From Candidatus Saccharimonadota bacterium (GTDB lineage Bacteria > Patescibacteriota > Saccharimonadia > Saccharimonadales > JACDFO01): a DNA stretch of 34,583 nucleotides. Position numbers and translations under genes: made by a program. Under the pieces are notes generated by a model that made no database searches, was not told the origin of the DNA, and saw nothing but the letters and a program-made list of their open reading frames with translations. This document shows positions 8,715 to 8,883 of this stretch, piece by piece; positions within the stretch are counted from its first letter, which is position 1, and each line of letters starts with the position of its first letter. The stretch spans positions 1 through 34,583 of the forward strand of contig JACDFO010000003.1 in assembly GCA_013815785.1 (NCBI GenBank), written 5' to 3'.

Positions 8715-8883
8715 CACAACTCTGGACCGCACTAGGCTACGCCGAGCAAAGCTCGCCGTATTCCAAGCGCTCTTGGCACATTACTGCGTCAGGCTGCCTG
8801 CGGGGCTCAGTTCACCGTACTACCTGTACGGCTCACTCGCTCCTCGTTGCTTCCTTGTACTGCATCCAAGTCCAAAGCTGTGT
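8715..8883 (-). ncRNA. Candidate structured RNA (copy B) sharing its core with copy A
   Basis: On the minus strand GAGCCGTACAGGTAGTACGGTGAACTGAGCCCCGCAGGCA (8795-8834) matches copy A at 33/40 positions. A 13-bp closing helix CACAGCTTTGGAC/GTCCAGAGTTGTG plus hairpins CCAAG-AGCG-CTTGG and CGAGC-TTT-GCTCG. Confidence 0.55.

What the first reader, a model, noticed from the sequence alone, without database searches (positions are those of the whole stretch)
8715..8883. Second, inverted copy of the same RNA core on the other side of the kinase/receiver pair
Seen: A, AAGCCGTACAGAGAGTACGGTGAAGTGAGCATCGCAGACA (6297-6336 +), and B, GAGCCGTACAGGTAGTACGGTGAACTGAGCCCCGCAGGCA (8795-8834 -), match at 33 of 40 positions. 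AGCGA lies just 5' in both. GCGA/TCGC in A corresponds to GCG/CGC in B as a possible flanking helix. Peripheral helices differ completely, although B has its own 13-bp closing helix. Conserved core with diverged periphery is how an RNA class behaves. Inference: an RNA family with at least two members bracketing a two-component system.
Basis: partly seen in the sequence, partly recalled or inferred. Interest (0 to 1): 0.85.

Follow-up and report, generated by a model that had tools for sequence, protein, structure and literature searches.

The report
Structured repeat inside Saccharibacteria genes
The two matching stretches beside this sensor-kinase pair belong to a large, previously unlisted family of short folded repeats that seem to have spread through many Patescibacteria genomes, sitting just before genes or, read straight through in frame, inside essential genes such as ileS and tsaD.

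Summary
A (6202-6418 +) and B (8715-8882 -) share the 40-nt core at 33/40 positions and also the same three-helix layout. They belong to a large family: a 71-position covariance model finds it in 122 of 298 genomes of the order (counting capped at 16 per genome), at least 17 times in this genome, and in other families of the phylum. Covariation is strong (19 pairs, 90% paired, 410 double changes against 129 by shuffle). The fold is better on one strand in 90 of 97 copies. Rfam has no match.

It is not specific to two-component systems. Many copies lie in frame inside conserved genes (ileS, tsaD, uvrD, glmS, pyrG, typA, prmC), open throughout; filled and empty alleles differ by multiples of three. 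Other copies end at the start codon of varied genes. Copies within one genome resemble each other more than expected, so they have multiplied there.

Best reading: a mobile, single-strand-folded element resembling Rickettsia palindromic elements, tolerated in genes because it is read through. What moves it is unknown. RAYT-type transposases co-occur with it, but their genes carry different palindromes.

The parts
6202..6418 (+). Copy A, full element (217 nt), between the DUF3048 gene (stop 6190-6192) and the histidine kinase start codon (GTG 6421)
   Evidence: P1 arms CCAGAACTTACGCGC / GCGCGTAAGGTTCTGG, 15 bp; MFE -112.7 kcal/mol, z -9.8 for 6205-6420
6274..6345 (+). Copy A, conserved core matched by model R2 (63.2 bits)
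   Evidence: R1 76.6 bits
6360..6400 (+). Copy A, hairpin P3
   Evidence: MFE structure, sequence
8715..8882 (-). Copy B, full element (168 nt), in the 527-nt gap between the receiver gene and ORF 8946
   Evidence: closing helix 8870-8882 / 8715-8727; z -4.5 on the minus strand, -2.0 on the plus strand for 8705-8885
8784..8856 (-). Copy B, conserved core matched by model R2 (52.5 bits)
   Evidence: R1 69.2 bits
8729..8770 (-). Copy B, hairpin P3
   Evidence: MFE structure, sequence
6421..7953 (+). Histidine kinase (HisKA, HATPase_c), downstream of A; context, not part of the element
   Evidence: Pfam
7972..8418 (+). Single-domain response regulator; context, not part of the element
   Evidence: Pfam

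Best explanation
A and B are two copies of a non-autonomous mobile element of about 70-220 nt whose function depends on the fold of one strand (RNA, or single-stranded DNA). It spreads in Patescibacteria genomes and lands in either orientation. Copies that survive are those that harm little: in intergenic spaces, often ending at the start codon of the next gene, or inside genes as in-frame, stop-free inserts that are translated as an extra peptide. Shown here: one family, covariation on one strand, multicopy and genome-clustered distribution, in-frame open inserts, filled and empty alleles. Inferred: that the inserts are translated rather than spliced or bypassed, that copies were moved by machinery acting in trans, and that the fold serves this movement. 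The mobilising enzyme is not identified.
For: Family and fold: 96 copies, 19 pairs, 89.9% paired, 410 double-change cells against 129 +/- 12 in shuffles and at most 137 when slid. Strand: sense more stable in 90 of 97 copies, control 67 of 146. Spread: R2 hits in 122/298 genomes of the order, 80/143 genera, and in 25/235 genomes drawn from the phylum. Multiplication inside genomes: nearest neighbour in the same genome for 20 copies, 3.8 expected, maximum 11 in 1000 shuffles; G072 holds two copies 96% identical in the core with 5' flanks that are largely unrelated. Insertion: ileS site 1 is 117 nt in L179 (empty), 222 in L130 (inserted antisense) and 234 in L155 (inserted sense); ileS site 2 is 117 in L130 (empty) and 183 in L179; tsaD site C is 120/123 empty and 270/291 filled. 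Four tsaD genes carry inserts at three different places. All those inserted genes read through without a stop and still match Pfam. Orientation: in-gene copies in both orientations.
Against: No target-site duplication was found (3.07 against 2.98 +/- 0.11 nt). No enzyme is linked: the RAYT-type genes that co-occur carry other palindromes. The arms of P1 are copy-specific yet complementary (own partner best of 21 in 27 of 61 copies, 2.9 expected), which is odd for a passively copied element with fixed ends and could mean selection on each copy in place. In-gene copies were recognised partly because the frame is open, so the absence of frame-breaking copies was judged only by inspection. No transcript or protein data.
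Confidence: 0.78

Rival explanations
1. A cis-acting regulatory RNA class (riboswitch-like or leader) that controls translation of the next gene, P1 hiding the start codon; two members happen to regulate a two-component operon.
For: 44 of 96 copies have a same-strand ORF of at least 100 codons starting 20-260 nt 3' of the core, most at 60-95 nt, where the 3' arm of P1 lies. In A the kinase GTG lies 2 nt after P1. Fold and core are conserved.
Against: Genes downstream are of many unrelated kinds. At least 20 of 96 copies lie inside sense ORFs and some lie antisense inside ileS and pyrG. B is antisense to its neighbours.
Confidence: 0.08
2. A new self-splicing or bypassed RNA insert: the element is removed from the mRNA (or skipped by the ribosome), so that genes stay intact.
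For: Inserts sit inside essential genes. The core hairpin AGCCGUA/UACGGU resembles the lower stem of group II domain V (own knowledge, a lead only).
Against: Inserts keep the frame and have no stops, which removal would not need. Antisense copies in ileS and pyrG could not splice as the same ribozyme. No Rfam family matches, even at relaxed thresholds. The first C of the hairpin changes in a quarter of the copies, unlike the invariant domain V triad.
Confidence: 0.06
3. A REP/REPIN-like element moved as single-stranded DNA by the RAYT (TnpA-REP) tyrosine transposases of these genomes. This is a narrower form of the best explanation.
For: RAYT-like genes in 41 of 122 genomes with the element and 12 of 176 without (odds ratio 6.9); 49% at five or more copies, 20% at one to four, 7% at none; family-stratified odds ratio 3.2, chi-square 5.7. 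TnpA-REP substrates are single-strand hairpins, and in-frame REP inserts are known (PMC6006769).
Against: Of the 20 fetched RAYT regions 17 have no copy within about 4 kb, and the three that do are all from one genome. RAYT genes are flanked by other, short perfect palindromes. 81 genomes with the element have no detected RAYT, and in family f35 there is no association.
Confidence: 0.17
4. Paralogous trans-acting small RNA genes maintained by selection at each locus rather than mobile.
For: Copy-specific arms stay complementary, and most copies are strongly diverged within a genome (mean 64% identity).
Against: Near-identical pairs at different loci, positions inside reading frames, different insertion sites in orthologous genes.
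Confidence: 0.06

Closest known systems
Rickettsia palindromic elements (RPE) and Wolbachia palindromic elements
   Same: Multicopy, about 100-150 bp, stem-loop forming, found between genes and in frame inside conserved protein genes without destroying the frame (PMC2229807; PMC3767692).
   Different: Other phylum and no sequence relation shown. Here the fold is strongly biased to one strand, with a 71-position core of covarying and non-canonical pairs, and the longest form is a three-helix RNA-like structure of about 217 nt.
REP/REPIN elements with RAYT (TnpA-REP) transposases
   Same: Hairpin repeats in bacterial genomes, in-frame insertions reported (PMC6006769), co-occurrence with RAYT genes here.
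   Different: REPs are 20-40 bp palindromes with GTAG or CGTC tags (PMC3733652). This element is larger, has a structured core, and is not the palindrome flanking the RAYT genes.
Bacterial MITEs that carry reading frames (ERIC/RU-1, Yersinia RU-2, Correia)
   Same: 100-200 bp, folded transcripts, near genes, sometimes fused in frame (PMC2229807).
   Different: No conserved terminal inverted repeat and no target-site duplication found; the arms are copy-specific.
Rfam structured RNA families
   Same: Has the marks of a structured RNA: covariation, conserved internal loops.
   Different: No family reaches its threshold at A or B.

Membership tests
Rickettsia palindromic elements | Insertion inside conserved protein genes with the frame kept | tested here: met
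Rickettsia palindromic elements | Sequence relation to a described RPE family | not tested
   No RPE sequences were compared; the hosts are of another phylum
Rickettsia palindromic elements | Palindromic fold of 100-150 bp | tested here: inconclusive
   Long self-complementary folds, but biased to one strand and 66-217 nt long
MITE | Conserved terminal inverted repeats | tested here: not met
   Arms are complementary within a copy but differ between copies; only a few bases next to the core side of P1 recur
MITE | Target-site duplication | tested here: not met
   Flanking direct repeats no longer than in swapped pairs; depends on how well the ends were placed
REP/REPIN of RAYT genes | The element flanks its RAYT gene | tested here: not met
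   17 of 20 RAYT regions lack it; other palindromes flank the genes
REP/REPIN of RAYT genes | Genomes with the element carry a RAYT gene | tested here: inconclusive
   Odds ratio 6.9, stratified 3.2, but 81 of 122 genomes lack a detected RAYT
Any Rfam family, including group I/II introns, riboswitches and ribozymes | Covariance-model score above the gathering threshold | tested here: not met
Riboswitch or leader tied to two-component systems | Consistent class of downstream gene | tested here: not met
Self-splicing intron | Host gene restored only by removal (frame or stop in the insert) | tested here: not met
   Inserts are in frame and open
Self-splicing intron | Excision in vitro or in RNA | not testable with these tools
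   No RNA data

The most novel reading that the evidence does not exclude
A phylum-wide class of mobile structured RNA in Patescibacteria, a bacterial SINE-like element, moved through an RNA intermediate or by reverse integration, whose conserved one-strand core is the recognition or catalytic part, and whose copies serve as in-frame protein inserts and start-codon leaders.
Probability: 0.25. Interest if true: 0.92.

Novelty: new variant of a known kind. Interest (0 to 1): 0.76.

Why it matters
In-frame mobile palindromes are known mainly from Rickettsia, Wolbachia and some proteobacterial repeats. Here an apparently separate family occurs in tiny, streamlined genomes of another phylum, inside genes as essential as ileS and tsaD. 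It carries a fold selected on one strand, which the known elements are not described as having and which makes the question of what moves such elements testable. It also warns annotators: unexplained 20-60 residue inserts in Patescibacteria proteins, and folded leaders at their start codons, may be copies of this repeat rather than protein domains or riboswitches.

Tried and rejected
Exact core pattern over 85,488 genomes and a viral collection: no match, because the stems vary. Core pattern with 3 mismatches in 298 genomes: only the window's genome, which first looked like a private repeat; the covariance model corrected this. Loci around the closest kinase homologues held no convincing copy, so the link to this kinase is not conserved. 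Domain V of group II introns: resemblance of one stem only, no Rfam support. Reverse transcriptase as mover: RVT_1 in 5 of 18 high-copy and 1 of 20 zero-copy genomes, too rare to explain the spread. RAYT as mover: statistical association but wrong flanking palindromes. Target-site duplication: none seen. An apparent pattern of an ATG on both sides of some start-proximal copies was noticed by eye and not confirmed.

Full report
Observation. Their local alignment score exceeds every one of about 3000 random pairs from the window. The two copies share more than the core. Each folds as a closing helix P1, a long irregular helix P2 with the core at its tip, and a hairpin P3 in a three-way junction. 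A spans 6202-6418 on the plus strand, B 8715-8882 on the minus strand.

A large family. A 54-position model built from A and B only found the core in 69 of 298 genomes of the order. Ninety-eight copies were fetched. Their alignment gave a 71-position model, R2, which finds 122 of 298 genomes and 80 of 143 genera. Counts are lower bounds because at most 16 candidates per genome were scored. In a draw of 235 genomes from the phylum, 25 have it, 20 of them outside the order (2 in the same class, 18 elsewhere in the phylum), some with 16-21 copies; this genome shows 17. A few of those outside hits are short partial matches near the threshold. E-values are rough, and I could not run an out-of-phylum control.

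Fold and covariation. Nineteen pairs over 96 copies are 89.9% paired with 410 double-change cells, against 129 in shuffles and at most 137 when the partner is slid. They are N15-N60, R17-Y57, C18-G56 and the two-pair step 23-53, 24-52, separated by conserved A.A, A.G and G.A positions, which suggest non-canonical pairs (inference). Several pairs use G-U freely: 147 G-U against 54 A-C cells. The sense strand is more stable in 90 of 97 copies, against 67 of 146 control stretches. A plain double-strand palindrome would not show this, so selection acts on a single strand, RNA or single-stranded DNA.

Where copies sit. About 20 of 96 copies are inside a same-strand reading frame and 44 more have a reading frame starting 20-260 nt 3' of the core, mostly at 60-95 nt, which is the 3' arm of P1. 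In-gene hosts include ileS, tsaD, uvrD, glmS, pyrG, typA, prmC, murC, fpg, a family 4 uracil-DNA glycosylase and a dus gene, and rarA in a genome outside the order (rarA and some other names are from the sequence by eye). The frame is open through every one of them. Filled and empty alleles give the sizes. At ileS site 1 the same interval is 117 nt in L179, 222 in L130 (antisense insert) and 234 in L155 (sense insert), so about 105 and 117 nt were added. At site 2 it is 117 in L130 and 183 in L179, 66 nt. At one tsaD site it is 120 or 123 nt empty and 270 or 291 filled. Four tsaD genes carry inserts at three different places. Different frames and both orientations are used, so no single peptide is being conserved.

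Movement. Copies in one genome are closer to each other than chance allows: 20 have their nearest neighbour in the same genome, 3.8 expected, maximum 11 in 1000 shuffles. In G072 two copies at different places are 96% identical in the core, with 5' flanks that match only near the element. I take this as multiplication inside genomes. The mechanism is not shown. RAYT-like Y1 transposases are commoner in genomes with the element (41 of 122 against 12 of 176; stratified odds ratio 3.2), but their genes are flanked by other short palindromes and mostly not by this element. Reverse transcriptases are too rare. I found no target-site duplication. The arms of P1 are copy-specific and complementary beyond chance (27 of 61 against 2.9 expected), which remains unexplained.

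Interpretation. The best-supported account is a non-autonomous mobile element with a fold selected on one strand, retained where it does little harm: between genes, at start codons, or inside genes as a translated insert. It works like a Rickettsia palindromic element (PMC2229807, PMC3767692), but membership in that sequence family was not tested. The two copies here flank a kinase/receiver pair by chance of insertion; other copies in this genome neighbour unrelated genes. A local effect of A on translation of the kinase is possible, since P1 ends 2 nt before its GTG, but untested.

Literature. In the held open-access library I found no description of such repeats in Saccharibacteria or Patescibacteria. 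Subscription papers and preprints are not held, so this is not proof of novelty.

Noticed in passing
L180-L199 (RAYT regions; e.g. L195, L199, L185): RAYT-like Y1 transposase genes of Saccharibacteria are flanked by short perfect palindromes with small loops (for example CTATAGGTCGGACCTATAG, TCCAGGGTCGGACCCTGGA), apparently their own REP elements.
   Followed up: partly
L150:480-1838 (-): One tsaD gene carries, besides the element near its start, two further insert-like segments of about 23 and 15 residues relative to other tsaD genes.
   Followed up: no
L167 (G075:C5:52900-58078): Three consecutive prepilin-like reading frames each carry a copy of the element directly before the N-terminal hydrophobic segment.
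   Followed up: no
window:8946-13933: After B come a small unknown ORF, an S24 peptidase (UmuD-like) ORF, a umuC-like polymerase gene, tRNA-Glu and a second histidine kinase/receiver pair, so SOS-type polymerase genes sit between two sensor pairs.
   Followed up: no
L100, L109, L178: Some copies end directly at the 5' end of a tRNA gene.
   Followed up: no
G032:C2:560000-590000: A stretch unusually dense in copies of the element, next to a RAYT-like gene.
   Followed up: partly
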